This document shows, in pieces, positions 21,039-41,123 of a stretch of 64,000 nt of DNA (within the stretch, counting starts at the first letter, position 1; the number at the start of each line of letters is the position of its first letter). The DNA lies in the NCBI RefSeq assembly GCF_011174775.1, contig NZ_JAANHS010000011.1, forward strand, positions 1 to 64,000, read 5' to 3'. A model generated the notes under the pieces. The model did not search any database. It saw nothing but the letters and a program-made list of their open reading frames with translations, and was not told where the DNA came from. The position numbers and the translations under genes were made by a program. Source of the DNA: Rhodobacter calidifons (GTDB lineage Bacteria; Pseudomonadota; Alphaproteobacteria; Rhodobacterales; Rhodobacteraceae).

Positions 21039-21057
21039 GACTCACGCGGGCCGGGCA
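21039..21057. repeat. 19-bp direct repeat at left edge of hydrogenase island
   Basis: The 19-mer GACTCACGCGGGCCGGGCA lies 29 bp beyond the hypE stop codon. The identical sequence in the same orientation is at 41046-41064, just beyond hupC. Similarity extends outward: both copies are preceded by GTTCCGA and followed by GGCAGA. Confidence 0.7.
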
Positions 21058-21085
21058 TTCTTTGGCAGACCGATGGGCCCGGACC

Positions 21086-23245: not shown

Positions 23246-23484
23246 GCGAGGGACTCCCGGCTCAGGGCCATCTGGTCGAGAGTCTCCTGCGCCTCGTCCG
23301 CGTCGATCAGGCTCATCGCAAAGCCCACATGGATCAGCGCCCACTGGCCGACCAGCGCCTCCAGGTCATGGCCCGCGACGCAGGCCACGTTCACCTCGCG
23401 CCGCACGCCCGAGACCTCGGCCATCGCCATCAGGCGGGCGGCATCGGTGATGGCGGTGATCCGGCCGGGGATGCCCAGACACAT
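23242..23484 (-). CDS. hypC: Hydrogenase maturation chaperone HypC
   Basis: This 80-residue chaperone starts MCLGIPG. The Cys right after the initiator Met binds the iron intermediate and the precursor of the large subunit. It shuttles the Fe(CN)2CO unit from HypD to HupL. It lies between the broken hupR and hypD with overlapping or near-touching ends, as in a polycistronic hyp operon. HupF upstream is its paralogue dedicated to HupL. Confidence 0.96.
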   Translation of the reverse strand: MCLGIPGRITAITDAARLMAMAEVSGVRREVNVACVAGHDLEALVGQWALIHVGFAMSLIDADEAQETLDQMALSRESLA

Positions 23485-23487
23485 GGC

Positions 23488-24968
23488 CTATTCCTCCTCC
23501 TCGTCCTGCATCTGGCCCGAGGGGGCCGCGATGCTGTACCGGTCCAGCTTGGCGTGCAGGTCCATGCGGCTGAGGCCCAGTTCCACCGCCGCGCGGCTCT
23601 TGTTCCAGCGGTGGCGGGTCAGCGTTTCGCGCAGGATGCGCATCGCGATCAGTTCCACCCGGTCCTTCAGCGTGCCGTCCGACACCAGAACCGCCTGTGC
23701 CGTGCGGTCGGCACCGGCCTCGGAAGGCAGGGCCTGCAGGATCGGGCGGCTGATGAGATCGGCGCCCAGCACCGGCGTGCGGGCATGGATCAGCATCCGC
23801 GTGACCTCGTTGAGAAGTTCGCGCAGGTTGCCGGGCCAGTCGTAATTCTCCAGAAACTCCAGCGCGGCGGGGGTGAAGCCTTGCGCGGCCTTGCCGTGGG
23901 TGGCGGCAAGGTCGGTCAGGAAATGCTGGGCGAGCAGCGCCACGTCGCCGCGCCGGGCGCGCAGGGGGGGGGGATCGCCATCTCGACCACCGCCAGCGCA
24001 TAGTAGAGGTCCAGCCGGAACCGCCCGTCCGCCACCCGCGCGGGCAGGTCGGCGCCTGCGCCCGCGATCAGGCGCAGGTTGGTGGTCAGCACCTCCTGCC
24101 CGCCGACAGGGGTGAAACTGCCCTCGTCCACCAGCCGCCACAGCGCCGGTTGCAGCGCGGGCGAGGCCTGTTCGATTCCCGCGACGAACAGGGTTCCGCG
24201 GTCCGCCTTCTGCGCGAGGCCGATCTTGTTCACGCCCCCCGGCAGCACGCCGCGCTTGGCCCCGAACAGCTCGACCATCGCCAGATCATCGGGCAGGCCC
24301 GCCAGGTTGATCGCTTGAAACGGCTTGTCGGAGCGCAGCGAGGCATAATGCATCGCCCGCGCGAGCCGCGCCCGGCCCGTTCCCGGTTCACCCAGCAGGA
24401 GCACCGGCACATCGAAACTGGCATAGTGCCGGGCCGTCTCGACCAGGGCGTTCATCGGGCTTTGCGGGCTGCGCAGGATGGTTTCGAACCCCATCCCGTC
24501 GCGCAGGGCGGTGCGGCGGCGTTCCAGCTTGGTCTGGGCGGTCGAGGCGAGGAACCGCATCTCGAGCGCCATGCGTTCGTTGTCGCGGGCCAGCTGGAAC
24601 AGCCGCGCGCCGTTGCGGGCAGCCATCACAAGCTGGTCGGGATGCCAGGGCTTGGTGATGAACTGGTGGATGCCGGCGTCATTGATCGCCTGGGCCATGG
24701 CGGCGGGGTCGGTGTAGCCGGTGATGATGATGCGCACCGTATCGGGCCAGCGCTCGCGCAGATCGGTCAGAAGCTCGACCCCCGTCCGGCCCGGCATCCG
24801 CTGGTCGCAGATCACCACCTGCACCCATTCCTCCTCCATCCGCGCCATGGCGGTTTCGGCATCGGCGGCGGTGATGCAGTCGAATTCGTCCTCGAGCGCC
24901 ATGCGCATGGCCGAGAGCGAATTCGGCTCGTCATCGACCAGAAGGACGGTGGGGCGCGGGGCGGTCAT
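23488..24968 (-). pseudogene. hupR: Frameshifted hydrogenase response regulator HupR
   Basis: HupR is an NtrC-family regulator that activates hydrogenase genes. The receiver domain ([10 protein letters not shown], phospho-Asp in VICDQRMPG, Lys in ITKPW) and the central AAA+ domain are read from the start at 24968. The central domain has a Walker A-like [11 protein letters not shown] in place of the usual GxxGxGKE. The frame is lost at a run of ten C on the coding strand (23964-23973). The rest, [13 protein letters not shown] to the Fis-type helix-turn-helix ([17 protein letters not shown]), continues in another frame to 23488. Eight C would restore [10 protein letters not shown] and give a 492-residue protein, the family length; eleven would also restore frame. 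It may be true loss, slippage or sequencing error. Confidence 0.85.
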
Positions 24969-25987
24969 GCCTGCGCCTCGGCCAGCCGGGCGCGCAGCCA
25001 GTCGAGCCAGGCGGGCATGCCTTCGCCGGTGCGGGCCGACAGGCGCAGGATCTCGATCCCGGGGTTCACCCGGCGCAGGTTGGCCTCGCAGAGGTCGAGG
25101 TCCACGTCGCAATGCGGGGCGAGGTCGGTCTTGTTCAGGATCGCCAGCCGCGCGGCGGTGAACATGTCGGGGTATTTCAGCGGCTTGTCCTCGCCTTCCG
25201 TCACCGAAAGGATGGCGACCTTTGCCGCCTCGCCCAGGTCGAAGGCGGCGGGGCAGACGAGGTTGCCGACATTCTCGATGAAGAGGTAGGATCCCGGCCG
25301 CGGGCGCAGGTCGTCGATGGCGTGGCCGACCATCGCGGCATCCAGATGGCAGCCCTTGCCCGTGTTGATCTGGATCGCCCGCGCGCCGGTGGCACGGATC
25401 CGGTCGGCGTCGGCCGAGGTCTGCTGGTCGCCCTCGATCACCGCAAGGGGGGCGTCGCCCAGGGCCTCGATCGTGCGGCACAGGAGCGTCGTCTTGCCCG
25501 ACCCGGGCGAGGAGACGAGGTTGAGGGCCAGCACCCCCAGCGCGCGCAGCACCCGCCGGTTCGAGGCGGCGATCGCGTCGTTCTTGGCCAGGATCGAGGT
25601 TTCCACCTCGATCAGCCGGGCCTGGCTCATGCCGGGCACGGAAACCCCGGCCGGGCCGGTGCCATAGTGCAGATGGTCGTGGGTATGGTCGTGGTCGTCC
25701 GCGCCATGGGCATGGGCATGGGCGTGGGCGGGGTCGCCGTGGTCGTGGTGCGGCCCGTGGCTGTGGTCATGCGGATGGTCATGGTGGTGGTCGTGCGGGT
25801 GATCGTGCACCAGGTCGCCGTGGCGGTGCGGGTGGCTGTGGCGGTGATGATGGTGGTGCGTGTGTTCGCCCGGCCCGACGGGACCGTGGTCATGGGAATG
25901 GGCAAGGCCCAGCCGGTGGGCCTCCTCGTGCGAGACCTCGCGCCCGTCGATCACCACCTTGTCGCCGCAGCCGCACACCGTGCACAT
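24965..25987 (-). CDS. hypB: GTPase / nickel-binding maturation protein HypB
   Basis: This 340-residue GTPase delivers nickel to the hydrogenase precursor with HypA. It starts MCTVCGCGD, the N-terminal Cys motif. A His-rich domain with about 35 His spans roughly residues 30-107 and probably stores nickel. The GTPase domain follows, with P-loop [11 protein letters not shown], the VIEGDQQT segment and the NKTDL specificity motif. The start is chosen at the CTVCGCG motif; it overlaps the hypA stop by one base. The downstream end overlaps the hupR start (ATGA). Confidence 0.97.
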
Positions 25988-26328
25988 CAGAGCACCTCCA
26001 TATCCTTGATCCGCAGCTCGTCGCCGCCCTGCGGGATCAGTCGCCCGCCGCCGCATTCGGGACATGGGTCCAGCCGGTCGGCGATCTGAACCGTTTTCGC
26101 GCAGTCATAGCACAGCGCCTGGCCGGGCAGGTCGATCATTTCCAGCCGCGCGCCTTCGGCCGGGCTGCCGCGCATCACGACGTCGAAGGCGAAGTCCAGC
26201 GCGGGTTTCTCGACCCCGGCAAAGCGGCCGATCTCCAGCCGCAGGACGGTGACGCGGGCAAAGCCATGCGCGCGGGCCTGATCGAGGACGATGCTGCGGA
26301 TGCCTTCGGCGAGGCTCATCTCATGCAT
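25987..26328 (-). CDS. hypA: Nickel insertion protein HypA
   Basis: This 113-residue metallochaperone starts MHEMSLAEG, the N-terminal Met-His-Glu nickel site. Its zinc-ribbon has two CxxC pairs (CYDC and CPEC). It hands nickel to the HupL precursor together with HypB. The start overlaps the hupK stop by 8 nt and the stop overlaps hypB, consistent with tight coupling. Confidence 0.96.
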
Positions 26329-27196
26329 GGCTGACCTCGGCAACAGTCACGGGGGCCACCGTCACGGGAATGCAGGGATCATGCAGCGCGACAAGCCGCG
26401 CGGCCAGGTCGGGCCGGTCGCCGGGCAGGCTGGCGAGCGCCAGCGAAAGGGCGCCGCCGGGGGCAAGCTGATGGTCGGTCGGCGTGATCCGCAGGACCGA
26501 AGTGACACGCCCCCCCGCCTGCCCCAGACGCAGGGCATAGGCCCCGCGCGCGGCCTGCACAACTGCCGTGCCGTCGGGCAGGCGGCGGGGCGGCGGCAGG
26601 GCACCGTCGCGGGCGGCCTCCAGATCGACCAGCATCCCGAGGTAGCGCCAGAGGGGACTGCGGCCCTGATCCGCCTCCACCGCGCGCAGCAGCGGGTGGC
26701 CGGCCTGCCGCCCGGCGGGCGCGTTTTCGAAGGCCCCCATTGCCGCGCCCTGCGGCTGGGGCAGCGGCGGCACCGCGCCAAGGCCGCGCGGAAAGCTGCG
26801 CGCCACCGCCCGGCCCAGATCGGCGGCGGGCAGGGGGCTGGCCAGCCAGGCGGACAATTCGTTCAGCGTGGCAGGCAGGCGGCCCGCTGCGCCAGGCACC
26901 TCGGCCGGGTCGGGGCGCAGCGGGGGCAGCTCGAAGGCCCGGCGCAGGGTGACGAAGATGCGGGCGAGATGATCGCGGATCACCTCGGCGCCGGTATCGG
27001 TGGCGTGCGGCAGGCCAAGGGCGACCTCGGCCGCGGTGGCCTGCGCCATGCGGCAAAGGTTGAACAGGCGCGGCAGCAGCACCGCTGCCTCCTCCACCGC
27101 CCGCCCGACCAGATGCGCGGCCAGATCGGGTCCCGACTGGCGATCGATCTGCCAGCCCGCCGCCCCTTGCGTGATCCGCGCCGCGCCGAGCGTCAT
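26321..27196 (-). CDS. hupK: Hydrogenase maturation protein HupK
   Basis: This 291-residue accessory protein is related to NiFe large subunits and is thought to serve as a scaffold during HupL active-site assembly. It keeps vestiges of the large-subunit motifs: [13 protein letters not shown] where the first Cys pair would be, and [11 protein letters not shown] near the C-terminus where HupL has DPCLAC, with one Cys instead of two. It overlaps hupJ and hypA. The middle is Ala/Pro-rich and poorly conserved. Confidence 0.88.
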
Positions 27197-27963
27197 CCGC
27201 CCAGCTCCCCGGTCAGGAGTTGCCGCCGCGAGGGCGTGGCCTCGGGCTCTGCCGGGGCCGCGGGCTCGGGCGCAAGCGCGGCCTCGCGCCGGGCGCGGAT
27301 CTCGGCGCTGCGGTCGGTCTCGGCCCGGTTCTCGGGCCTGAACAGTTCGACCATCGCCGCGCGGGCCACCTCGACCGCCTGCATCTGGCTGGTGAAATCG
27401 CCCATCGGCGAGAACAGCGCGCAGGCCAGGTAGGGGCCCACCATCTCGCGGCTGGCGTGCATGAATTCGTAGTCGCCCGAGGGGAATGTCAGCACCTCCT
27501 TCGTGCCCGCCTTCAGGGCCGGGCGGTCGGCCCCCGGCAGGAACACGAGGTTCATGAACCAGGGCGCGATCAGGATGCCCAGGAACCCGCCCTCGTGCGG
27601 CTGGAACGCCACGGCCTGCACATGCAGCGCCTGATTGACCACGGGCAGGTCGCGCATCCTGGAATGGAACACCTTGGTGAAGTCGGCGACCAGGGCCTTT
27701 GTCCGCGCCTCCATCTCGGCCATCAGGGCGGCAGAGGGGGCGCCGGGATCCTCGCGCACCAGGAACTGCGCGCGCGGGGCGGAGCAGCCGGGGCAGGTCC
27801 AGTCCTCGGGCAGGTCGAGGAAGGCGGTGCCGGGGCTGATCTGCCGTGTCTCGTCGCCCTCGGCCGGGTCATAGGGCGTCCAGCAGATCTTGCATTCCAT
27901 GATCGCGGCCGGGCTGATCTTGTCGGCCGCGCCCAGATAGCTGCCTTCGAACCCCGGGGTCAT
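27193..27963 (-). CDS. hupJ: Rubredoxin-HybE-type hydrogenase assembly protein HupJ
   Basis: This 256-residue protein combines an N-terminal rubredoxin domain, with iron ligands in MECKICWTPYD and DWTCPGCSA, and a HybE/HupJ-type chaperone domain from about residue 85 (FHSRMRDLPVVN, FLGILIAPWFMNLVFLPG). In rhizobia these are separate HupI and HupJ proteins; the fused form is the Rhodobacter arrangement. It probably protects or escorts the hydrogenase precursor in the presence of oxygen. Start and stop overlap hupH and hupK, and the C-terminal 35 residues are Ala/Pro/Glu-rich. Confidence 0.9.
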   Translation of the reverse strand: MTPGFEGSYLGAADKISPAAIMECKICWTPYDPAEGDETRQISPGTAFLDLPEDWTCPGCSAPRAQFLVREDPGAPSAALMAEMEARTKALVADFTKVFHSRMRDLPVVNQALHVQAVAFQPHEGGFLGILIAPWFMNLVFLPGADRPALKAGTKEVLTFPSGDYEFMHASREMVGPYLACALFSPMGDFTSQMQAVEVARAAMVELFRPENRAETDRSAEIRARREAALAPEPAAPAEPEATPSRRQLLTGELGG

Positions 27964-28793
27964 CGGATCGCCTCGATCACTTCGCGGATGCGTATGGCGC
28001 TGTCGGCCAGGTCCTCGGCCGCGGCGATGGCGACCTCGGGCATCTCGCAGACCTCGTAGGTGTCCAGGATCAGCGTGTCCATCGAGTTGAAGAACTGCAC
28101 CTTCCAGACATGGGCCTGCGCGCAGGCGGTGACGCGGCAGTTGCCGTAGCCGCGCGACAGGATGGTGACCGAGCCTTCGCCCAGCGCCTCGGACAGCCAG
28201 GCCAGATCCTCGGGCGAATGGGGCAGGAGCGAGAGGTTCACCACATGGGCGAGGCTGCCGGGGCGGCGGGTCAGCGACTTGTCCACCAGCTCGGCCAGAA
28301 TGGCGGGCGCGTTGGCCAGCCCCGGCACGCGGCGGGCCAGGAGCCCGAGCGCCGGGCTGTGGGGCAGATGCGCGCGGGACAAGGCCAGTGTGGGCACGGG
28401 GGCGATCTCGACCGTATCCATGCCGGCGGCCAGCAGCATCCAGACCCCGGCAAAGACGCTTTCCTGCACCATCACGGCGGGCCGCCCGCGCAGCTTCATC
28501 GAGACCTCGCCCTGACCCAGGGCGTCGGCCATCACCTTGCGGGCGGCGGGCGACAGGGTAGCGAGGTCGAAGCTGACGGCAGCGCTGCCCCCTGCCACCG
28601 CCGCGCAGGCGCTGGCCATCTCGGACAGCATGGCCAGGGCCTCGGCCAGGGCGGCGGCGTCCTCGGCCTCGGGGATATGGGGTTCATAGACGCGCATGCC
28701 CGAGGGCATGGGCATGTATTGCAGTTCGCCCTCCGGGTCGGGTTGCGAGCCGGGCCCGAAGCCGGTGGGGGGAAGGGTGAAGGGCGAAACCAT
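27960..28793 (-). CDS. hupH: Hydrogenase expression/formation protein HupH
   Basis: This 277-residue protein of the HupH/HyaF family is needed for full uptake-hydrogenase activity; its biochemical role is unsettled. The conserved C-terminal half (ILSRGYGNCRVTACAQAHVWKVQFFNSMDTLILDTYEV) with its two Cys is clear. It overlaps hupJ by ATGA and follows hupG by 9 bp, the same order as in Rhodobacter. Confidence 0.93.
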   Translation of the reverse strand: MVSPFTLPPTGFGPGSQPDPEGELQYMPMPSGMRVYEPHIPEAEDAAALAEALAMLSEMASACAAVAGGSAAVSFDLATLSPAARKVMADALGQGEVSMKLRGRPAVMVQESVFAGVWMLLAAGMDTVEIAPVPTLALSRAHLPHSPALGLLARRVPGLANAPAILAELVDKSLTRRPGSLAHVVNLSLLPHSPEDLAWLSEALGEGSVTILSRGYGNCRVTACAQAHVWKVQFFNSMDTLILDTYEVCEMPEVAIAAAEDLADSAIRIREVIEAIR

Positions 28794-28802
28794 GGGCGGA
28801 CC

Positions 28803-29219
28803 TCAGGCGGCTTTGAGCGACAGGAAACGGGTGATGCGGGCGAGGTAGTCCGACCAGTCGCGCACCCGCTCCACCGCGCCCAGGAAATCGGACTGGCGGA
28901 AGAACAACAGGCCCGGCGTCTTGAGCGCGCGCCAGGTCTCGCGCAGGTCGGCCTCGATGGCGTCGCCGATCACCGCGCAGTCGAAGGCGCCCTGAAACGC
29001 CTGCCGCAGTTCCGGCAGGATCACGGCGGCGTCGGCGGTTTCCAGATTGCGGCGCGCGTCGCCCGGGATGAACAGGCAATGCACGCCGGGGCGGGCCAGG
29101 AAATCGGCCACCGCGTCGGGATCATCCAGCCGGGGATAACCGAAGTCTGTCGTCAGCCGGGCCAGGCTGGGGTGCAGGGCGGTGGCGGGGGGCAGGTCGT
29201 ATGGCGCATGGTCGTGCAT
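28803..29219 (-). CDS. hupG: Hydrogenase-1 HyaE-like chaperone HupG
   Basis: This 138-residue protein of the HyaE/HupG family has a thioredoxin-like fold without redox Cys (CLFIPGDARRN). The family is believed to bind the Tat signal of the small subunit and proofread its export. The start at 29219 (MHDHAPYDLPP) is chosen because the frame upstream reads through hupF in a shadow frame. It lies 5 bp after hupF. Confidence 0.9.
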   Translation of the reverse strand: MHDHAPYDLPPATALHPSLARLTTDFGYPRLDDPDAVADFLARPGVHCLFIPGDARRNLETADAAVILPELRQAFQGAFDCAVIGDAIEADLRETWRALKTPGLLFFRQSDFLGAVERVRDWSDYLARITRFLSLKAA

Positions 29220-29224
29220 CGGTG

Positions 29225-29545
29225 TCACCCTGTGGTTCGGCCCGCGTCCAGCGCGGCTTGCAGATGGGGGGGAAGGCGGGGCGTGCGGGCCTCGAGATCG
29301 GCAAAGGCATCCCCCGCGTCGCCGCCCGCCATGACCTGCGACAGACCGGCCAGCGCCTTGCGGATCAACAGCGCCTCGGCCTCGGGCAGGATCTCGCGCG
29401 CGGTGCCGAGGAAACCCAGCACCCAGTCGCCGGGGCGGGCATCGGGCAGAAGCGACAGGTCCAGAAGCTGCAACTGCCCGTTGTCGGTGGCATGGCCCAC
29501 GATCCCGTTCACCGCCTGAAGCTGCATCGGGATGCCCACGCACAT
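29225..29545 (-). CDS. hupF: HypC-family hydrogenase chaperone HupF
   Basis: This 106-residue paralogue of HypC starts [10 protein letters not shown], so that Cys becomes the functional N-terminal residue. It has the longer C-terminal tail typical of HupF. It protects the HupL precursor, especially under oxygen. The ATG overlaps the hupD stop codon. A TTG one codon upstream is an alternative start but would bury the Cys. Confidence 0.93.
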
Positions 29546-30153
29546 CAAGCGGCCCCCGGCAGAAAGCGGGCATCGCCAACGCGGCAGGCCGCATCCTCGG
29601 ACGGCCGGCCCGCCTCATAGGCGTCGCGGCGGATCGACGGGTCGGCCAGAAGCGGGCTGTCGGTGCGCCCTTCGCGCACCGCAACGCCCCAGTCGGCCAG
29701 GATGTCGCGCGCGATGGCCAGCGCCTCGAGGATACGGGCGGCGACGGCGGGGCGCAGGCCGCCGCCGTAATCCTCCAGCTCGACCGGCTGGCAGCCGATC
29801 AGCACCATGCGCGCCGGGCAATAGCCCATCAGCTGCGCCGTGGCGATCACGTCCTGAAAGCCGGTCTGATGCAGGCTCATCTTCCTGGCGCCCATGAAGG
29901 CGGGCACCTCGCTGTCGCGGATGACCTTGATCGTGCCGGGCGGCAGGCCGTAGTCGATAGCATCGAACACGATCAGCGCATCGGCCTCTTCCAGGAAGGG
30001 AAGCAGATAGAGCCCCTGCGTGCCGCCATCGAGCAGGCGGACGTGGTCGGGCAGGGCGTGGGTTTCGGCCATCATCTCGACGCAGCGGACGCCGAAGCCT
30101 TCGTCGGCCCAGAGCACATTCCCGATGCCCAGAATCAGAACCTTCGGCGCCAC
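29545..30153 (-). CDS. hupD: Hydrogenase large-subunit maturation protease HupD
   Basis: This 202-residue endopeptidase clips the HupL C-terminal extension after nickel insertion. Its nickel-sensing residues are in [14 protein letters not shown] (Glu), VFDAIDYG (Asp) and KMSLHQTG (His). The start is GTG (residues MAPKVLILG), preceded by GGGGAGGAAAG. It is the first gene of the left arm, divergent from hupT. In Rhodobacter capsulatus hupD instead follows hupSLC. Confidence 0.95.
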
Positions 30154-30350
30154 GGGTCTTTCCTCCCCTTGAGTGTGGTCGGATGCCTTTCACATCCGCC
30201 TGGAAGTGAGAGTATGGTTTTCAGGGGGCCGGGAAAGGGAATTTGCGAAATGCCCGACTTTTGTTCAAGCATCGGAAAGAACGACGGAATTTCGGTATCC
30301 CTCTGCGCACTGCGGAAGGCAGGCTGGAAAGAGGCCTTTCGGTCGGAGCC

Positions 30351-30361
30351 TTGACCGACAA
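30351..30361. promoter_or_regulatory. Candidate HupR-binding site in hupD-hupT divergent region
   Basis: TTGACCGACAA matches the TTG-N5-CAA palindrome described for HupR of Rhodobacter capsulatus. It lies about 90 bp before hupT and 198 bp before hupD, in the 298-bp divergent gap that must hold both promoters. I see no exact match just upstream of hupS. Confidence 0.5.
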
Positions 30362-30451
30362 CTTGCCTGCCAGTTGTACCTGGGGTGACAGGGCGGCGGG
30401 ACTGCCAACATTCTTCTGTTCACAGCCCCGCGCGGCTTCTAAGATTCCCGC

Positions 30452-31781
30452 ATGGCCTCTGCGTTCGACATCCTGAGTTCCGACCGACCGGCGCAGTTCA
30501 CCGATGACGCCTGGGGCGAGGTGCTGTCGGCGATGGACCGCACCTATGCCGACCTGGTGAGCTATCAGGAACAGCTCGAGCGGCAGAATGCCGAGCTGGA
30601 GGAGATGCGCACCTTCCTGACGGCGATCCTGTCCTCGGTGTCGGATGTGCTGATCGTGACCGACCGGGGGGGGGCGGATCGCGCGGATCAGCGAGTCGCT
30701 GACCCGGATTGCGGGGCCGGATCGCAGCCTTCTGGGCGCGCCGGTGGCCGATCTGTTCGCCGAGGAGCATCGGGGCACCGTGGCCGCCATGCTGCAAACC
30801 ATCCGCGACAGCCGCCGCACCGGCAGCTTCGAGGCGAACCTGCTGGCGGCCGAGGGGGTGGAGCCGCTGGACATCTCGATCGCGCCTCGGCTGGATGACC
30901 GGGGGCGGGTCGATGGTTTCGTGCTGACCGGGCGGCCCCTGGGGGCCCTGCGCGCCGCCTATGCCGAGTTGCGGCAAAGCCATGACGCGCTGAAGACGGC
31001 GCAGGCGCAGCTGGTGCGCAACGAGAAGCTGGCCTCGCTGGGCCGCCTGCTGGCCGGGGTCGCGCATGAGCTGAACAACCCGATCAGCTTCGTCTATGCC
31101 AACACCCATGCGCTGGAACGCTATGCGGGCAAGTTCGAGACCTATTTCGCCCGGGTTCAGGCCGGCGCCAGCCGCGAGGAGCTGATCGCCCTGCGTCAGG
31201 ACCTGCGGCTGGACCGCGAGGTGGCCAATCTGCGCGAGGCGACGAAGGGCGCGCGCGAAGGGGCCGAACGGGTGCGCGACATCGACGAGGATCTGCGGCG
31301 GCTGTCGGCCGACGGTGCGGGCGACATGGTGCTGTTCGACCTGGCCGAGATCGTGCGCGTCGCGGCCAGCTGGGTCATGCGCGGCCGGAAGGAGCCCGTG
31401 GCGCTGGAGATGGAGCCGATGCAGTCGGTGCAGGTTCGCGGTCGGCCCGGGCATGTCCAGCAGGTGGTGATGAACCTGGTGCAGAACGCGGTCGATGCGC
31501 TGGAGGGACAGGCCGATGGCCGGGTGCGGCTGTCGGTCGTGCAGGCGGGCGACCGGGCCGACCTAACGGTGCAGGACAACGGCCCCGGCATCCCCGCCGA
31601 GGTGGCGGCCGCGATCTTCGATCCCTTCTTCACGACCAAGCCGGTCGGGCGCGGCACCGGACTTGGCCTGTCGATCAGCCACAAGATCGCCCAGGAACAC
31701 GGCGGCACCCTGACCTTGTGCGACACGCCCGGCCCCGGCGCCTGCTTCCGGCTGAGCCTGCCCTGCGAGGCCGGGTCATGA
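30452..31781 (+). pseudogene. hupT: Frameshifted hydrogenase sensor kinase HupT
   Basis: HupT is the soluble PAS histidine kinase that, with HupUV, controls HupR phosphorylation. The frame from 30452 gives a coiled coil and the start of a PAS domain (SSVSDVLIVTDRGG). It goes out of frame at a run of nine G (30666-30674). The remaining PAS, the phospho-acceptor His box VAHELNNPISF, the N box NLVQNAVDAL and the G boxes DNGPGIP and GTGLGLSI continue in a second frame to 31781. Removing one G restores a smooth GGRIARISES junction and a 442-residue protein. It overlaps hupU (ATGA). It may be real inactivation, slippage or a base-calling error. Confidence 0.85.
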
Positions 31782-32764
31782 CGACGCTGCTCTGGCTTCA
31801 GGCCTCGGGCTGCGGCGGCTGCACGATGTCGCTGCTCTGCGCCGAAAGCCCGGGCGTGATCGAGATGCTGGAGGATGCGGGCATCCGCCTTCTGTGGCAC
31901 CCGGCGCTGTCGCTGGCCACCGGGGCCGAGGCGCGGGCGATCCTCGACGATGTGGCCGAGGGGCGGGTGCCGCTGGATATCCTGTGTGTCGAGGGCGCGA
32001 TCGCGCGGGGGCCGGGCGGGACGGGGCGGTTCCAGATGCTGTCGGGCACCGGCCAGAGCCTGATGGCCTGGGTGCAGCGGCTGGCGCCCAGGGCGCGGCA
32101 TGTGGTGGCGGTGGGCACCTGCGCGGCCTATGGCGGGGTGACGGCGGCAGGCGGCAACCCGACCGATGCGGTGGGCCTGCACTACGACGGCGCCCATCCC
32201 GACGGACTGTTCGCCCCCGCCTGGCGCAGCGGGTCGGGCGCGCCGGTCGTCAACGTGGCGGGCTGCCCCACGCATCCCGGCTGGGTGACGGAAACGCTGA
32301 TGCTGCTGGCGGCGGGCGAGCCCGTGGCGCTGGACGGCTACGGCCGGCCGCGGTTCTATGCCGATCATCTGGTCCATCACGGCTGCCCGAAGAACGAGTT
32401 CTACGAATACAAGGCCAGCGCCCGCAGCCTGTCGGAACAGGGCTGCATGATGGAGAACCTCGGCTGCATCGGCACGCAGGCGGTGGGCGACTGCAACATC
32501 CGGCCCTGGAACGGCGAGGGCAGCTGCACGCGCGGGGGCTACCCTTGCATCAACTGCACCGCGCCGCAGTTCGAGGATCCGGCCCATGCCTTCGTCGAGA
32601 CGCCCAAGATCGCGGGCATCCCCGTGGGCCTGCCGACCGACATGCCCAAGGCCTGGTTCATGGCGCTGGCCTCGCTGTCCAAGGCGGCAACCCCGCCCCG
32701 GATCGACCGGAACGCCCATGCCGACCGGGTGGTCGTGCCGCCCACCCTGCGCAAGCCGCGATGA
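31778..32764 (+). CDS. hupU: H2-sensing hydrogenase small subunit HupU
   Basis: This 328-residue small subunit of the cytoplasmic regulatory NiFe hydrogenase carries three FeS clusters. The Cys set matches a small subunit: SGCGGCTMS, VGTCAAYGG, AGCPTHPGW, HHGCPKNEF, and the distal CTRGGYPCINC region. There is no Tat signal, as expected for a cytoplasmic sensor. It overlaps hupT and hupV by 4 nt each, indicating coupled translation of the sensing module. Confidence 0.95.
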   Translation: MTTLLWLQASGCGGCTMSLLCAESPGVIEMLEDAGIRLLWHPALSLATGAEARAILDDVAEGRVPLDILCVEGAIARGPGGTGRFQMLSGTGQSLMAWVQRLAPRARHVVAVGTCAAYGGVTAAGGNPTDAVGLHYDGAHPDGLFAPAWRSGSGAPVVNVAGCPTHPGWVTETLMLLAAGEPVALDGYGRPRFYADHLVHHGCPKNEFYEYKASARSLSEQGCMMENLGCIGTQAVGDCNIRPWNGEGSCTRGGYPCINCTAPQFEDPAHAFVETPKIAGIPVGLPTDMPKAWFMALASLSKAATPPRIDRNAHADRVVVPPTLRKPR

Positions 32765-34197
32765 CGGGTGACGTGACCGGGGCGCGGCTGGTCGTCGGCC
32801 CGTTCAACCGGGTCGAGGGCGATCTGGAAGTAACGCTGGATGTGGCCGGGGGCCGAGTGGCCCGCGCGCAGGTGAACGCGCCGCTCTACCGCGGGTTCGA
32901 GCGCATGCTGGAGGGTCGCGATCCGCGCGACGCGCTGGTCATCACCCCGCGCATCTGCGGGATCTGTTCGATCAGCCAGTCCACCGCGGCGGCCCATGCC
33001 CTGGCGGCGGCGATGGGGCTGACGCCCACCCCCCAGGGCGCGCTGGCCGCTGCCCTGATCCACGCGGCCGAGAATGTGGCCGATCATCTGACGCATTTCC
33101 ACCTGTTCTTCATGCCCGACTTCGCCCGCCCCGCCTATGCCGGGCGCCCCTGGCATGCGCGTGCGGTGGCGCGGTTCATCGCGCTGGAGGGCGGCGCGCA
33201 GCGCGCGGCGGTGCAGGCCCGGGCCGAGCTTCTGCACGCCATGGGCCTGATGGCGGGCAAGTGGCCGCATACGCTGGGGATCCAGCCGGGCGGCGTGACC
33301 CGCGCGCCGGGGCCGCGCGAAAAGGCGCGCCTGGCCGCCACGCTGCGCGCCTTCCGCCGCTATCTCGAAACCGTGCTTTTCGGCGGGCGGCTGGAGGATT
33401 TCTGCGCGCTGAAGGACGTGGCCGCCCTGATGCGCTGGCCGAGCGGCGATGTGGCGCTGTTTCTGGGCATCGCCGCCGACCTTGGCCTTGCGGGACTGGG
33501 CCGGGGCGCCGGGCGCTACCTGTCCTTCGGGGCCTATCCGCTCGCCGATGGTCCGGCCTTTGCGGCGGGCACCCGCAGCGCGGGCGCCCCGGGCCCGGTC
33601 CGGCCCGCCGAGATCGCCGAGGATCTGAGCCATGCCTGGATGCTGGGCGGCACGGCGCATCCCCTGGACGGCATGACCACCCCGGACGAGGGCATGGCCG
33701 CCCCGGCCTACAGCTGGTGCAAGGCCCCGCGTCTGGCAGGCCAGCCGATGGAGGTGGGGGCGCTCGCCCGGCAGGTGGTGGATGGCCACCCGCTGGCGCT
33801 GGCCCTGGCCGAGGAGGGCGGGGTGGTGGCCCGCGTCGGCGGGCGGCTTCTGGAACTGGCGCGGACCCAGATCCTGATGGAGGCCTGGGTGGCGGCCCTT
33901 GCCCCCGGCGAAAGCTTCATGGCGCAGTGCAGCCTGCCGCGCGACGGGCAGGGCGCAGGCATGGTCGAGGCGGCGCGCGGGGCGCTGGGGCACTGGCTGC
34001 GCATCCGGAACGGCAAGATCGCCAATTACCAGATCATCGCGCAGACGACCTGGAACTTCAGCCCGCGCGATGCGGCCGACGTTCCCGGCCCGCTGGAGGC
34101 CGCGCTGGAGGGCACGCAGGTCGAAGGGCCGGTGCCGCTGGCCGTGCAGCATGTGGTGCGCAGTTTCGATCCCGGCATGGTCTGCACGGTGCACTAG
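32761..34197 (+). CDS. hupV: H2-sensing hydrogenase large subunit HupV, with a lost nickel-ligand Cys
   Basis: This 478-residue large subunit is meant to hold the NiFe site that senses hydrogen for HupT. The first ligand motif RICGICSIS is intact and the protein ends at His as HupV/HoxC proteins do, without a cleavable tail. The second motif reads SFDPGMVCTVH, with Gly472 (codon GGC, 34174-34176) where DPCxxC proteins have the terminal nickel-ligand Cys. One T-to-G change from TGC would explain it. The rest of the frame is whole. Unless the base is a sequencing error, this subunit should not bind nickel normally. Confidence 0.92.
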   Translation: MTGDVTGARLVVGPFNRVEGDLEVTLDVAGGRVARAQVNAPLYRGFERMLEGRDPRDALVITPRICGICSISQSTAAAHALAAAMGLTPTPQGALAAALIHAAENVADHLTHFHLFFMPDFARPAYAGRPWHARAVARFIALEGGAQRAAVQARAELLHAMGLMAGKWPHTLGIQPGGVTRAPGPREKARLAATLRAFRRYLETVLFGGRLEDFCALKDVAALMRWPSGDVALFLGIAADLGLAGLGRGAGRYLSFGAYPLADGPAFAAGTRSAGAPGPVRPAEIAEDLSHAWMLGGTAHPLDGMTTPDEGMAAPAYSWCKAPRLAGQPMEVGALARQVVDGHPLALALAEEGGVVARVGGRLLELARTQILMEAWVAALAPGESFMAQCSLPRDGQGAGMVEAARGALGHWLRIRNGKIANYQIIAQTTWNFSPRDAADVPGPLEAALEGTQVEGPVPLAVQHVVRSFDPGMVCTVH

Positions 34198-34210
34198 GGG
34201 AGGCGGCGGA

Positions 34211-34228
34211 CCGGGGGCCAGCCCCCGG
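34211..34228. terminator. GC-rich hairpin between hupV and hypF
   Basis: CCGGGGGCCAGCCCCCGG forms a strong stem in the 54-bp gap, followed by CCCCCGGGATATTT leading into the hypF start. There is no U-run, so termination is uncertain; it may moderate read-through or hypF translation. A related hairpin sits before lysS. Confidence 0.4.
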
Positions 34229-34251
34229 ACCCCCGGGATATTTGTGGACAG

Positions 34252-36489
34252 ATGAAAGAGCGGGCAGTCACGATCCGGGTGCAGGGGCAGGTGCAGGGGG
34301 TGGGGTTCCGGCCCTTCGTCTGGCAGCTGGCGCAGGAGTTCGGGGTGCGCGGGCGGGTCTGGAATGATGCGGAAGGTGTGGGGATCGAGGCCTCCGGCGC
34401 CGGGCTGGAGGCCTTTGTCGCCGCGATTTCCGCCCGGGCGCCGAAGCTCGCGAGGGTCGATGCGGTGGAGATCTCGGGCTTCGCAGGCGAGCTGCCCGAG
34501 GGGTTCGAGATCGCCCCGAGCCGGGGCCGGGGGGCCGAAACCCGCGTCACGCCGGATGCCGCCACCTGCCCGGCCTGCGTCGCCGAGATCGCCGAACCGG
34601 GGCGCCGCCAGGGCTATGCCTTCACCAACTGCACCCAGTGCGGCCCGCGCTTCAGCATCCTGAAGGGCCTGCCCTATGACCGGGCGCAGACCACGATGGC
34701 GGCCTTTCCGATGTGCCCCGACTGCCGGGCAGAGTATGAGGATCCCGCCGACCGCCGCTTTCATGCCCAGCCGGTGGCCTGCCCCACCTGCGGCCCGCGC
34801 CTGTGGTTCGAGGTGTCCGGCACCGAGCTGCCGGGCGATCCGATCGCGCAGGCCGTGGCCTGCCTGCGGGCGGGGGGCGTCGTGGCGGTGAAGGGGATCG
34901 GCGGGTTCCATCTGGCCTGCGATGCCCGCAACCCGGCCGCCGTCGCCCTGCTGCGCGCCCGCAAGCGCCGCCCGGCCAAGCCCTTGGCCGTGATGGCGCG
35001 GCGGGCCGACCTGGCTGCGCTGGCCGAGGTGACCGAGGCGGACCTTGCGCTCCTGTCCGATCCCGCCGCGCCCATCGTGCTCCTGCGCTCGCGCCGGACC
35101 CTGCCCGAGGGGATCGCCCCCGGCATGGCCGCGCTTGGCGTCCTGCTGCCCTACACGCCCTTGCACCATCTGCTCTTGGAGGCCTTCGGCGGCCCCCTCG
35201 TGATGACCAGCGGCAATCTGTCGGGCGAGCCGCAGGTGATCGGCAACGCCGAGGCGCGCACGAAGCTGGCCGGGTTTGCCGACGGCTTCCTGATGCATGA
35301 CCGCGAGATCGCCCGGCGGCTGGACGACAGCGTGGAACGCAGCCAGCCCCCGATGATCCTGCGCCGCGCGCGGGGCCGGGTGCCGGGCACTCTGCCGCTG
35401 CCGCCGGGATTCGCGGATGCGCCGCAGGTGCTGGCACTGGGCGGGCAGATGAAGGGGGCGATCTGCCTGGTGAAGAACGGGCAGGCGCTGCTGGGCCACC
35501 ACCTCGGCGATCTGGACGCTACGCTAAGTGCCGATGAGTTCGTCAAGGCGGTGGCGGACTACCGTGCGCTGTTCGACCATGCCCCCGCGCTGGTCGCGGT
35601 GGATGCCCACCCCGGCTATCGCGCCACGCAGGCCGGTCAGGCGATGGGCCTGCCGGTGGCCGAGGTCTGGCACCACCACGCCCATCTGGCCGCCTGTCTG
35701 GCCGAGAACCTCTGGCCGCTGGATGGCGGCAAGGTGGCGGGGATCGTGCTGGACGGCACGGGCCTTGGCCCCGACGGCACGCTCTGGGGCGGCGAGGTGC
35801 TGCTGGGCGACTACCACGGTTTCACCCGCGCCGCCCACCTGCGCCCCGCGCCGCTGATCGGCGGCGACAGGGCGGCGCGGGAACCCTGGCGCAATGCGCT
35901 GGCCCGGCTGGATCAGGCGGGGCTGGCGGACTGGGCCGATGCCCTGTTTGCGCAGGCCCCGCGCGACCTCTTGCGGCAGGCGGCGGCGCGCGGGATCAAC
36001 GCGCCGCTCTCGTCCAGCGCCGGGCGGCTGTTCGATGCCTTCGCCGCCGTGCTGGGCCTCTGCCCCATGGCGCAAAGCTATGAGGGCGAGGCCGCGATGC
36101 GGCTCGAGGCACTGGCGCAGGACGGGGGGGCGGGCCTGCCCTTTGCACAAAGGGGCGCCCTGATCGACCCCGCCCCGATCTGGGCCGAGGCGCGGCGCGC
36201 CCTGCAGGCGGGGGCATCGCCGGCCGAACTGTCGGGGCGGTTCCATCTGGGGCTTGCGCAGGCCTTCGCCGCCGCCGCGCGTGACCTCGTGGCGCGCGGA
36301 GAGGCCCGGGCCGTGGCCCTGTCGGGCGGGTGTTTCCAGAACGCGCTGCTGCACGATCTGACGATCCGGGCGCTGGGCGAGACCCCCGTGCTGACCCATC
36401 GGGTGACGCCCGCGAATGACGGCGGACTCGCGCTGGGGCAGGCGACCGTCGCGGCAGCGAATGCGCTGCGCGGGGTGGAAAGCCGCTGA
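34252..36489 (+). CDS. hypF: Carbamoyltransferase HypF
   Basis: This 745-residue enzyme uses carbamoyl phosphate and ATP to carbamoylate the HypE C-terminal Cys. Domains in order are an acylphosphatase domain (VQGQVQGVGFRPFVWQ), two zinc-finger blocks (CPACVAEI/CTQCGPRF and CPDC/CPTC), a YrdC-like domain, and a Kae1-like domain with the HHHAH-type metal site (VWHHHAHLAACL). The ribosome binding site is weak and the start is preceded by a GC-rich hairpin. It lies between the sensor genes and hupSL, as in Rhodobacter. Confidence 0.96.
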   Translation: MKERAVTIRVQGQVQGVGFRPFVWQLAQEFGVRGRVWNDAEGVGIEASGAGLEAFVAAISARAPKLARVDAVEISGFAGELPEGFEIAPSRGRGAETRVTPDAATCPACVAEIAEPGRRQGYAFTNCTQCGPRFSILKGLPYDRAQTTMAAFPMCPDCRAEYEDPADRRFHAQPVACPTCGPRLWFEVSGTELPGDPIAQAVACLRAGGVVAVKGIGGFHLACDARNPAAVALLRARKRRPAKPLAVMARRADLAALAEVTEADLALLSDPAAPIVLLRSRRTLPEGIAPGMAALGVLLPYTPLHHLLLEAFGGPLVMTSGNLSGEPQVIGNAEARTKLAGFADGFLMHDREIARRLDDSVERSQPPMILRRARGRVPGTLPLPPGFADAPQVLALGGQMKGAICLVKNGQALLGHHLGDLDATLSADEFVKAVADYRALFDHAPALVAVDAHPGYRATQAGQAMGLPVAEVWHHHAHLAACLAENLWPLDGGKVAGIVLDGTGLGPDGTLWGGEVLLGDYHGFTRAAHLRPAPLIGGDRAAREPWRNALARLDQAGLADWADALFAQAPRDLLRQAAARGINAPLSSSAGRLFDAFAAVLGLCPMAQSYEGEAAMRLEALAQDGGAGLPFAQRGALIDPAPIWAEARRALQAGASPAELSGRFHLGLAQAFAAAARDLVARGEARAVALSGGCFQNALLHDLTIRALGETPVLTHRVTPANDGGLALGQATVAAANALRGVESR

Positions 36490-36546
36490 CCGCCGGGGCG
36501 GAAAGCCGGCAAGCAGGCGACCGCCCCCCGCCGCGCCGCCACCCTT

Positions 36547-36559
36547 CAAGGCGCTGATT
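36547..36559 (-). promoter_or_regulatory. Candidate IHF site upstream of hupS
   Basis: On the minus strand AATCAGCGCCTTG fits the IHF consensus WATCARNNNNTTR exactly. It lies about 120-130 bp before the hupS start. IHF-assisted activation of hupSL is established in Rhodobacter capsulatus, so the position is sensible. Confidence 0.55.
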
Positions 36560-36680
36560 CAGCACAGGAAAACAGCAATCCGCGGCGGCGGCATTTTTCT
36601 TTGTATGCCACGGCACACCCTGCTTCCCTAGCGGCGGAGAGGTGCGAAGGCGCCTTTGGGGACATGAGGGAGGGCCAGCG

Positions 36681-37766
36681 TTGAGCCAGATCGAAACCTT
36701 CTACGAGGTCATGCGACGTCAGGGGATTACCCGGCGCAGCTTCCTGAAATACTGTTCGCTGACCGCCAGCGCCTTGGGCCTTGGCCCCAGCTTCGTGCCG
36801 CAGATCGCCCATGCGATGGAAACGAAGCCGCGCACGCCGGTGATCTGGGTCAATGGCCTCGAATGCACCTGCTGTTCGGAAAGCTTCATCCGGGGCGCCC
36901 ATCCGCTGGCCAGGGATGTGGTCCTGTCGATGATCTCGCTCGACTACTGCCACGTCCTGATGGCCGCCGCAGGCCATGCCGCCGAGGCCGCCATGGAAGA
37001 GGCGATGGAGCAGCACCACGGCAACTACATCCTGGCCGTCGAGGGCAACCCGCCGCTGAACGAGGACAGGATGTTCTGCATCGTCGGCGGCAAGCCCTTC
37101 GTGGAACAGTTGCGCCGGGCGGCCGAAGGGGCGAAGGCGATCATCGCCTGGGGGGCCTGCGCCAGCTATGGCTGCGTGCAGGCGGCCAAGCGCAACCCGA
37201 CGCAGGCCACGCCCGTCCACAAGGTCATCACCGACAAGCCGATCATCAAGATCCCCGGCTGCCCGCCCATCGCCGAGGTGATGACCGGCGTCATCACCTA
37301 CATGCTGACCGTCGACAGGCTTCCCGAACTGGACCGTCAGGGCCGCCCGGCGATGTTCTACGGCCAGCGCATCCACGACAAATGCTATCGCCGCCCGCAT
37401 TTCGACGCGGGCCAGTTCGTCGAGGCCTGGGACGACGACAACGCGCGCAAGGGCTATTGCCTTTACAAGATGGGCTGCAAGGGGCCGACGACCTACAACG
37501 CCTGCTCCACCATCGGCTGGAACGAGGGCGTCAGCTTCCCGATCCAGTCGGGCCACGGCTGCATCGGCTGTTCCGAGGACGGCTTCTGGGATCAGGGCAG
37601 CTTCTACAACCGCCTGACCAACATCAAGCAGTTCGGGGTCGAGGCGAATGCCGATCAGGTCGGCATGGCGGCCGCCGGCGTGGTGAGCGGCGCGGTGGCA
37701 GTGCATGCAGCCATCTCGGCGCTGAAACGGGCGCAGAAGAAAACGCAGGACAAGGTGGAGGGCTGA
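36681..37766 (+). CDS. hupS: Uptake NiFe-hydrogenase small subunit HupS
   Basis: This 361-residue FeS subunit of a periplasm-facing group 1 uptake hydrogenase passes electrons from HupL to HupC. It has a Tat signal (TRRSFLKYC then a hydrophobic stretch to AHAME), the proximal cluster motif [12 protein letters not shown], and a C-terminal hydrophobic anchor ([19 protein letters not shown]). I prefer a TTG start giving [15 protein letters not shown], because GGGAGG lies 8 nt upstream and homologues begin so. A GTG at 36642 would add 13 Arg/Gly-rich residues. Confidence 0.95.
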
Positions 37767-37769
37767 GCC

Positions 37770-39563
<1,794 letters not shown>

Positions 39564-39576
39564 GGGAGGGAAAGCG

Positions 39577-40149
39577 ATGACCAAACTTGCCTATGCGATC
39601 ATGCTGACCGTGCTGGCGGGCCCGGCGCTGGCCCACACCGGGGTGGGCGAGGCCAACGGCTTCGTGCACGGGCTGCAACACCCGATCTTCGGGCCGGATC
39701 ACCTTCTGGCGATGCTGGCGGTGGGGCTGTGGTCGGGCTTCGTGCTGCCGCACCGCTTCTGGGCCGGGGCGGCGGCCTTCATGGGGGCGATGGCGGTGGG
39801 CGCGGGCATCGGCTGGGCCGGGATCGACTTTCCGATGGTCGAGACGGTGATCGTCGGGTCGGTCGTGGCCTTCGGTCTGCTGACGCTGGTCGCGCGCCGC
39901 GGCCAGCCGGGCTGGGTGACGGGGGCCTCGCTGGCCGCCATCGCCGCCTTCGCCACCGCCCATGGCCACGCCCATGCGACCGAGGCCACGGGCAATGCCT
40001 TCGCCTATCTGGCGGGCTTCCTGATCTCGACCGCCGCGCTGCATCTGGCCGGTATCGGCATCGCGCGGGCGGTGGCCGCCCGGCCGATCGTGCAGCAGGC
40101 GATGGGGGCGGGGATCGCCCTGTCGGGCCTTCTGATGATGGCGGGCTGA
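39577..40149 (+). CDS. hupE: HupE/UreJ-family nickel permease
   Basis: This 190-residue inner-membrane nickel importer supplies the hydrogenase. It has a cleavable signal (MLTVLAGPALA), the conserved HPIFGPDHLLAMLAVGLW motif with the metal-binding His and Asp, and about six membrane segments. A His-rich HGHAH stretch lies between helices. The start at 39577 has GGGAGGG upstream. It sits between hupL and hupC, where the Rhodobacter capsulatus order (hupSLC) has no gene. Confidence 0.92.
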   Translation: MTKLAYAIMLTVLAGPALAHTGVGEANGFVHGLQHPIFGPDHLLAMLAVGLWSGFVLPHRFWAGAAAFMGAMAVGAGIGWAGIDFPMVETVIVGSVVAFGLLTLVARRGQPGWVTGASLAAIAAFATAHGHAHATEATGNAFAYLAGFLISTAALHLAGIGIARAVAARPIVQQAMGAGIALSGLLMMAG

Positions 40150-40153
40150 CATC

Positions 40154-40895
40154 ATGGCCCCCCCCCTCAGCCCCCGTTCCCGCCCATGACGCGGCCCCCG
40201 AGGACCTGGCTACCGTCAACCGGCAGACCTCGATCTATGTCTATGAGGCGCCTGTGCGCCTGTGGCACTGGATCAACGCCGCGTCGATCCTGGTCCTGAT
40301 CGTCACCGGCTACTTCATCGGCTCGCCGCCGCCCACGATGATCATCGGCGAGGCTTACGAGCAGTTCGTCTTCGGCTACATCCGCTTTGCCCATTTCGCC
40401 GCCGGGCAGGTGCTGCTGATCGCCTTCCTGGGCCGGATCTACTGGGCCATGGTCGGCAACCACCATGCAAGGCAGCTGTTCTACGTCCCGTTCTGGAAGG
40501 CGGACTTCTGGCAGGAGGTGCTGTTCGAGCTGCGCTGGTATCTCTTCCTGGAGAAGGAGCCGAAGAAATATGTCGGCCACAACCCGCTTGCTCAGGTGGC
40601 GATGTTCTTCTTCATCACGCTGGGCGTGACCTTCATGGTCTTCACCGGGTTCGCCCTTTACGCCGAAGGCGCACAGGAAGGCAGCCTGACCCATGATCTG
40701 TTCGGCTGGATGCACGGGCTGACCTGGAACAGCCAGCGGATGCACACCCTGCACCATCCGGGCATGTGGTGGATCGTGATCTTCATGATCATCCACATCT
40801 ATGTCGCGATCCGCGAGGACATCATGAGCCGCCAGTCGATCGTATCCACCATGATCTCGGGCCACCGCACCTTCAAGGACGACCGCGACGACTGA
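40154..40895 (+). CDS. hupC: Hydrogenase b-type cytochrome HupC, 5' end out of frame
   Basis: HupC anchors HupSL and passes electrons to quinone through two haems b. The conserved part starts NRQTSIYVYEAPVRLWHWINAASIL and continues through four membrane helices with His ligands (IRFAHFAAGQV, LHHPGMWWIVIFMIIHIYVAIRED). No ATG, GTG or TTG precedes it in frame. The ATG at 40154 is followed by nine C; with eight C it would read straight into MAPPSAPVPAHDAAPEDLA and then NRQTS. I therefore place the gene start there and treat the C run as a +1 frameshift. A CTG start at about 40206 is the alternative. Confidence 0.75.
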
Positions 40896-41045
40896 ACCTT
40901 GGGGCAGGGGGGCGGCAGCGCTGCGCCGGTCATGGCCGTGGCAGTCAGACATGGCGCGACCTGCCTCGCAGGCGGCTGGCGCCTGATCCCGGCTTCGGCC
41001 CGTCGGAACTGGTCGTTCATCGTCACACCGTCGGTTCCGAGGCAC

Positions 41046-41064
41046 GACTCACGCGGGCCGGGCA
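41046..41064. repeat. 19-bp direct repeat at right edge of hydrogenase island
   Basis: This is identical to 21039-21057 and in the same orientation, and lies 150 bp beyond hupC. The flanks also match (GTTCCGA before, GGCAGA after). The 228-bp gap between hupC and the TerB-like gene holds nothing else recognisable. Confidence 0.7.
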
Positions 41065-41123
41065 CTTTCAGGCAGAGCCATGGATCCTGAGCCTGCGGAG
41101 GCCGGGGTGCAGCCCGACCTGCG

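What the first reader, a model, noticed from the sequence alone, without database searches (positions are those of the whole stretch)
23488..40895. All three long G/C tracts seen in the window disrupt hydrogenase genes; H2-signalling chain carries three separate lesions
I noticed only three G/C runs of nine or more, and each shifts the frame of hupR, hupT or hupC. With the HupV ligand loss, sensor, kinase and regulator are all affected while HupSL and most hyp/hup accessory genes are intact. Possibilities are regulatory decay giving constitutive or absent expression, slippage-based phase variation, or systematic homopolymer error. The HupV change argues that not everything is error. In Rhodobacter, loss of HupT derepresses and loss of HupR silences the hydrogenase, so the combined outcome is not predictable.
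Basis: partly seen in the sequence, partly recalled or inferred. Interest (0 to 1): 0.75.

Follow-up and report, generated by a model that had tools for sequence, protein, structure and literature searches.

The report
Broken hydrogen-sensing chain in hydrogenase island
In one bacterium the sensor, kinase and regulator that normally switch on hydrogen uptake each carry separate, recent-looking damage, most likely early decay of a dispensable gene island, although only fresh sequencing can rule out errors in three long G/C runs.

Summary
The window has three G/C runs of nine or more (G10 23964-23973, G9 30666-30674, C9 40158-40166). Two shift the frame inside hupR and hupT; the third puts hupC's ATG out of frame. 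HupV has Gly (34174-34176) where 79 of 79 readable relatives have the first Cys of the Ni-binding DPCxxC motif.

Generic homopolymer error is unlikely: of 49 genomic runs of eight or more that I could place, 23 lie inside single-frame genes, including five 9-mers, and I found frame breaks only at these three. The out-of-frame parts still resemble relatives and regulators show no raised N/S, so lesions are recent, or errors local to the tracts.

Correction: hupSL are open, but HupS has four substitutions at residues invariant in 51 of 51 homologues. The locus is a 20-kb island; 3 of 32 same-genus species carry both large-subunit types, and one species shows the flanks 2.2 kb apart.

Best reading: recent inactivation of the HupUV-HupT-HupR relay in a dispensable island. 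HupR acts last, so the predicted state is off. Phase variation is not excluded but unsupported. No reads were available.

The parts
23491..24968 (-). hupR, split: receiver and AAA+ core in one frame (about 24968-23974), AAA+ lid and Fis-type HTH in another (about 23970-23491)
   Evidence: codon-frame HMM; tblastn split with 5 relatives; Pfam domains of the two pieces; predicted product 350 aa against 492 in L005
23964..23973 (.). G10 run (C10 on the coding strand of hupR); 12 of 12 aligned relatives have 8 bases here
30452..31778 (+). hupT, split: first 71-72 codons in one frame, PAS, HisKA and HATPase_c domains in another
   Evidence: predicted product from the ATG is 148 aa
30666..30674 (.). 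G9 run in hupT; 18 of 18 aligned relatives are net one base shorter
31826..32761 (+). hupU, sensor hydrogenase small subunit, open; annotated start may lie upstream
   Evidence: tblastn with relatives; matches hydrogenase small-subunit families below their cut-offs
32773..34197 (+). hupV, sensor hydrogenase large subunit, open, stop codon included
34174..34176 (+). GGC (Gly) in place of the first Cys of the C-terminal DPCxxC Ni-binding motif
   Evidence: 79 of 79 readable relatives have Cys; aligns with Cys of solved large subunits
34267..36483 (+). hypF, intact
   Evidence: TIGR00143 over cut-off
36681..37763 (+). hupS, open; substitutions at 36912 (K78R), 37068 (G130R), 37191 (P171R), 37311 (F211V) at residues invariant in 51 of 51 homologues
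   Evidence: TIGR00391 over cut-off
37770..39560 (+). hupL, uptake hydrogenase large subunit, open
   Evidence: PF00374 747.6 bits
39577..40146 (+). hupE-like membrane protein, open (name by position, recalled)
   Evidence: tblastn with relatives; no NCBIfam match at 1e-10
40158..40166 (.). C9 run directly after the ATG (40154) of hupC
40154..40895 (+). hupC, cytochrome b subunit; body intact from about 40164, ATG out of frame with it
   Evidence: TIGR02125 over cut-off for 40182-40892; N-termini of relatives; in-frame starts
21089..22108 (-). hypE
   Evidence: TIGR02124 over cut-off
22112..23344 (-). hypD
   Evidence: TIGR00075 over cut-off
23245..23484 (-). hypC-type chaperone
   Evidence: TIGR00074 over cut-off
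24968..25987 (-). hypB
   Evidence: TIGR00073 over cut-off
25993..26328 (-). hypA
   Evidence: TIGR00100 over cut-off
26357..29219 (-). hydrogenase accessory genes; 27199-27963 carries the HybE chaperone domain, the other three (hupK, hupH, hupG by gene order, recalled) have no NCBIfam match at 1e-15
29228..29545 (-). hupF, HypC-type chaperone
   Evidence: TIGR00074 over cut-off
29551..30153 (-). hupD maturation endopeptidase
   Evidence: TIGR00140 over cut-off
20885..41132 (.). hup island: conserved flanks (to 20884 and from 41133) lie 2.2 kb apart in G024 of the same genus

Best explanation
A recent, real loss of function in the hydrogen-sensing relay (HupUV sensor, HupT kinase, HupR regulator) of a dispensable 20-kb hydrogenase island. 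Shown: two frameshifts at long G/C runs, a displaced start codon at a third, a lost Ni ligand in HupV, and other changes at strictly conserved residues, HupS included. Inferred: silent or tolerated substitutions first lengthened the G/C runs, replication slippage then changed their length, and selection to keep the relay was weak. Because HupR acts last and is cut before its DNA-binding domain, the predicted state is hydrogenase off, whatever HupT and HupUV do; the displaced hupC start would also cut the enzyme from the quinone pool.
For: Frames split only in hupR and hupT, displaced start in hupC. HupV Cys in 79 of 79 readable relatives. Of 49 placed runs of eight or more, 23 lie inside single-frame genes and no further frame break was found. 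Counting 26 coding runs, three breaks all falling on the three hup runs has a chance of 1 in 2600 (by hand; post hoc). Window-unique changes at residues otherwise invariant: HupS 4, HupV 3, HupR C-part 4, against 0/1/0, 1/0/0 and 1/0/1 in L004/L005/L006 (Fisher 0.0012, genes chosen after seeing the data). No such change in LeuA (23 relatives) or MutS (26), so base errors are not pervasive. Island: 3 of 32 same-genus species have both large-subunit types; G024 has the flanks 2.2 kb apart. No nifH over cut-off. Rhodobacter capsulatus hupT and hupR deletions give constitutive and absent response (PMC5133592, passages); Cupriavidus necator H16 has a naturally inactive HoxJ kinase (PMC10073562, passages).
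Against: No reads. Regulators as a group do not show raised N/S (31/65 against 56/155 for the rest, Fisher 0.34), so long relaxation is not seen; the cluster-wide window ratio (87/220) is above L004 and L005 but about that of L006 (124/306). HupV's count of 3 is matched by L074, and HupS's 4 is exceeded by the divergent L083 with 12. LeuA and MutS sets include a very close sister, which shortens the window branch. All frame breaks sit on runs, which is also what error would do. Clustering of three runs in 16.2 kb has P 0.043.
Confidence: 0.55

Rival explanations
1. Local sequencing or assembly error: the run lengths are wrong in the deposited sequence and the relay is whole; the HupV and HupS changes are real but harmless, or are errors too.
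For: The out-of-frame parts are as conserved as expected of working genes: hupR 79-90% and hupT 66-85% identity to relatives, beside 86-90% and 68-88% for the in-frame parts. No regulator-specific rise in N/S. Public assemblies do contain artefactual frameshifts, and assembler choice matters (PMC11017572, abstract and passages).
Against: Five 9-mers and eighteen 8-mers elsewhere lie in single-frame genes. Random error would have to fall on just the three hup runs. The HupV change is not in a homopolymer. No window-unique change at invariant sites in LeuA and MutS.
Confidence: 0.27
2. Slippage-based phase variation: the runs are contingency switches that turn hydrogen sensing and hydrogenase on and off in subpopulations.
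For: Runs of 9-10 G/C inside or at the start of three genes of one pathway; downstream frames still conserved. Homopolymer tracts are proposed as a general regulatory device in prokaryotes (PMC2831843, start of abstract in a search listing).
Against: No comparable run at the aligned site in 12 of 12 (hupR) and 18 of 18 (hupT) relatives. mutS and mutL whole. Three independent switches in one chain would seldom all be on. The HupV lesion is not switchable. One search for phase variation with homopolymeric tract and hydrogenase gave two papers, neither on hydrogenase switching by title or abstract start.
Confidence: 0.1
3. Programmed frameshifting or transcriptional slippage on the G/C runs lets some full-length HupR and HupT be made from the sequence as it stands.
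For: Both pieces of hupR and hupT stay conserved.
Against: The runs are not conserved in relatives; hupC would need a different event at its start; no other signal was sought or found.
Confidence: 0.04
4. The whole hydrogenase, not just its regulation, is being lost; the regulators are merely hit first or by chance.
For: HupS changes at four residues invariant in 51 of 51 homologues; hupC start displaced; island absent from most of the genus.
Against: hupL has one unique change at an invariant site and hupS/hupL/hupE/hupC have N/S 21/79; HupS cluster Cys residues align with those of HoxK.
Confidence: 0.3

Closest known systems
Rhodobacter capsulatus HupUV/HupT/HupR hydrogen-sensing system
   Same: Same genes and domain layout, and a hup/hyp cluster in which the two hydrogenase large subunits, maturation genes and regulators lie together
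   Different: Here hupR and hupT are frameshifted, hupC lacks an in-frame start near its 5' end, and HupV lacks one Ni ligand
Cupriavidus necator H16 HoxJ (naturally inactive kinase of the hydrogen-sensing system)
   Same: A natural strain whose hydrogen-sensing relay is uncoupled by mutation
   Different: There one amino-acid change in the kinase leaves the regulator working; here sensor, kinase and regulator are all hit, so the predicted state is off rather than H2-independent expression
Homopolymer-tract contingency loci (phase variation)
   Same: Long G/C runs in coding sequence that change the frame
   Different: No evidence of length variation, no conservation of the runs, and one lesion is not a tract

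Membership tests
HupUV/HupT/HupR hydrogen-sensing system | Sensor [NiFe] hydrogenase genes next to a PAS-HisKA-HATPase kinase and a receiver-AAA+-Fis regulator | tested here: met
   (in pieces for hupT and hupR)
HupUV/HupT/HupR hydrogen-sensing system | Uninterrupted reading frames of hupT and hupR | tested here: not met
HupUV/HupT/HupR hydrogen-sensing system | Four Cys Ni ligands in HupV (RxCGxC and DPCxxC) | tested here: not met
   RICGIC present; first Cys of the second motif is Gly
Pseudogene / decaying pathway | Disrupting lesions absent from orthologues | tested here: met
   hupT full-length in 70 of 74 and hupR in 29 of 30 loci with a match; the 5 partial ones were not followed up, most have HupV near a contig end
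Pseudogene / decaying pathway | Relaxed selection (raised N/S) in the hit genes | tested here: not met
   Fisher 0.34 for regulators against the rest; a recent loss would not show it
Pseudogene / decaying pathway | Loss of conserved residues | tested here: inconclusive
   excess in HupS, HupV and HupR C-part, genes picked post hoc
Phase-variable contingency locus | Tract length varies between cells or strains | not testable with these tools
   no reads and no second strain; one genome per species
Phase-variable contingency locus | Tract retained at the site across relatives | tested here: not met
   12 of 12 and 18 of 18 aligned relatives lack it
Systematic homopolymer error | Runs of this length elsewhere in the assembly also break frames | tested here: not met
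   23 of 49 placed runs inside single-frame genes, no other frame break found

The most novel reading that the evidence does not exclude
Three G/C contingency tracts jointly switch hydrogen sensing and hydrogen oxidation on and off in an environmental alphaproteobacterium, with the sampled cell in the off state.
Probability: 0.08. Interest if true: 0.8.

Novelty: new member of a known kind. Interest (0 to 1): 0.36.

Why it matters
If real, it is a natural case in which sensor, kinase and regulator of one small relay are all damaged while most of the enzyme's genes stay open: a snapshot of how a patchy accessory island starts to go. It also warns that a hydrogenase locus in an assembly does not mean hydrogen use. 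If the tract lengths vary, hydrogen uptake would be phase-variable, which I did not find described in the searches I made. C. necator H16 is a precedent for natural uncoupling of hydrogen sensing.

Tried and rejected
Systematic homopolymer error: rejected as a genome-wide effect by the run survey. The survey list tallied 92 matches of an 8-mer; by hand I could place 91 of them in 49 runs, so one match is unaccounted for. Of the 49 runs 23 lie inside single-frame segments, 3 are the hup runs, and 23 are noncoding or at gene edges. Six of the edge runs were looked at as possible frame changes: L122 and L161 proved to be gene junctions by family search; L115 by the stop seen; L164, L167 and the second run of L173 by stop positions only. 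Of the five 9-mer genes four are over a curated cut-off (UbiG, acetylornithine deacetylase, glutamate racemase, GlgX); L119 matches a symporter model across the run but below its cut-off.

Mutator by loss of mismatch repair: mutS and mutL are whole. A spare HupR: the next best matches in the genome are 30-33% identical. Alternative HupC start just after the tract: no ATG, GTG or TTG in frame before 40254. A first codon model picked the wrong strand and was retrained.

Frameshift control: in 420 kb (20 random-looking stretches plus L154) five frame-change candidates were flagged, none at a G/C run, none checked by homology; the filter missed hupR itself, and the 400 kb of the 20 stretches happen to hold no run of eight or more (35 of seven or more), so this control speaks only to shorter runs.

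Papers: eight searches. The search for a hoxA pseudogene in Rhizobium leguminosarum found nothing; that precedent is recalled only and I do not rest on it.
Full report
What is there. The window belongs to a 3.62-Mb draft genome in 59 contigs whose nearest hup loci among named genomes are from Pseudotabrizicola, a Rhodobacteraceae MAG and Frigidibacter (L004-L006). From 21.1 to 40.9 kb it carries hypE, hypD, hypC, hupR, hypB, hypA, four accessory genes, hupF and hupD on the minus strand and hupT, hupU, hupV, hypF, hupS, hupL, a hupE-like gene and hupC on the plus strand (hupK, hupH, hupG and hupE are named by position from recall).

The lesions. The only G/C runs of nine or more are G10 in hupR, G9 in hupT and C9 at the start of hupC. 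A codon-frame HMM trained on the same genome and tblastn with relatives' proteins both put a frame change exactly at the first two and nowhere else among the matched proteins. Twelve of 12 relatives aligned at the hupR site are two bases shorter and 18 of 18 at the hupT site net one base shorter, with interrupted runs. HupR as written would have 350 residues, against 492 in L005, and lack the AAA+ lid and the Fis-type DNA-binding domain; HupT would have 148, with the PAS, HisKA and ATPase domains in another frame. In hupC the body is intact and passes the family cut-off, but the ATG that relatives use is out of frame with it and the first in-frame start codon is 100 bases further on. HupV has GGC at 34174-34176 where 79 of 79 readable relatives have Cys (77 DPCMVC, one DPCMAC, one DPCMFC; L052 is cut off); in solved large subunits the aligned residue is Cys. 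That this Cys is a terminal Ni ligand is established knowledge, recalled.

Is it error? The genome has 18 runs of nine or more and 49 of eight or more that I could place (91 of the 92 tallied 8-mer matches). Twenty-three lie inside single-frame coding segments (21, two), five of them 9-mers in genes with family matches across the run. The other runs, hup apart, are noncoding or at gene edges. So the assembly reads long runs in frame elsewhere, and breaks occur only in hup. Three breaks falling by chance on the three hup runs among 26 coding ones has a probability of 1 in 2600 (by hand, post hoc). Clustering of the runs alone is weaker: 4.3% for three of 18 within 16.2 kb, 45% within 64 kb. Relatives' hup regions hold 7 runs of nine or more in 1.44 Mb, two of them inside single-frame segments. 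LeuA and MutS show no window-unique change at otherwise invariant sites (23 and 26 relatives), so base errors are not pervasive; those sets include a close sister, so the test is for error, not for rate of evolution. None of this excludes error confined to the three tracts, and no reads were available.

How old is it? The parts beyond the frameshifts are still 79-90% (hupR) and 66-85% (hupT) identical to relatives, beside 86-90% and 68-88% before them. Terminal-branch counts of nonsynonymous and synonymous codons give 31/65 for the regulators and 56/155 for the rest in the window (Fisher 0.34); cluster-wide 87/220, above L004 (95/513) and L005 (80/371) but like L006 (124/306). The lesions are therefore recent, or not real. 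Conserved-residue loss gives a different hint: at sites invariant in the other sequences of 60% identity or more the window alone differs at 4 sites in HupS, 3 in HupV and 4 in the HupR C-part, against 0/1/0, 1/0/0 and 1/0/1 in L004/L005/L006. Over all loci K78R, G130R, P171R and F211V of HupS are unique among 51 of 51, L397M, P424Q and C468G of HupV among 79 of 79, E106A and G134D of the HupR C-part among 29 of 29, V204D of the HupT C-part among 70 of 70 (numbers count within the pieces used). Results against: L074 also has 3 such changes in HupV and L083 has 12 in HupS, and the three genes were singled out after seeing the data (Fisher 0.0012). HupS keeps the cluster Cys residues that align with C. 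necator HoxK.

Context. In the genus 7 of 32 genomes have a PF00374 match; three (the window's, G026, G029) have both a HupL-type and a HupV-type match on one contig, the others have other or fragmentary matches (G018 also has a partial hupT-like DNA match). The sister closest in LeuA and MutS, G020 (98% each), has no PF00374 match. In G024 window positions 20884 and 41133 lie 2.2 kb apart in the same orientation, so the hup locus is an island gained here or lost there. No nifH passes its cut-off; the two best matches are BchL and BchX. The one RuBisCO-large match is partial and was not typed. mutS and mutL are whole. There is no second HupR.

Mechanism. In R. capsulatus HupUV and HupT phosphorylate HupR without H2, and unphosphorylated HupR activates; deletion of hupT gives constitutive and of hupR no response (PMC5133592, passages). 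A HupV without a Ni ligand should not sense H2, which would leave the kinase on; loss of HupT would relieve that; loss of HupR ends the chain. So the order of events cannot be told, but the end state should be off, unlike C. necator H16, where only the kinase is naturally inactive (PMC10073562, passages). I take slippage at runs that had grown to about eight bases as the mutational route (inference), on an island under little selection (inference from its patchiness). Phase variation remains possible: the downstream frames are conserved, and that is what a recently switched-off gene would also look like. It lacks any positive evidence here.

Verdict. The rival that the whole hydrogenase is decaying overlaps with the main reading and is scored separately.

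Noticed in passing
window 36912, 37068, 37191, 37311: HupS carries K78R, G130R, P171R and F211V at residues invariant in 51 of 51 homologues, so the uptake enzyme itself may be impaired.
   Followed up: partly
window 20885-41132: The hup locus is a 20-kb island; in G024 of the same genus the flanks lie 2.2 kb apart. The content of those 2.2 kb was not examined.
   Followed up: partly
L177, L178 (G000:C56): bchL and bchX are present and over their cut-offs, with no nifH over its cut-off: bacteriochlorophyll genes without nitrogenase.
   Followed up: partly
L128 3484-3503 (G000:C59:52383-52402): A C20 run lies between genes, the longest G/C run in the genome by the pattern search.
   Followed up: no
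L179 1501-2004 (G000:C11): A single partial RuBisCO-large match (profile 2-171 of 299); form not determined.
   Followed up: no
L253, L254 (G020:C9:992-6841): In the closest sister G020 the sequence that follows the hup island here lies some 60 kb from leuA on the same contig, so the region is rearranged.
   Followed up: no
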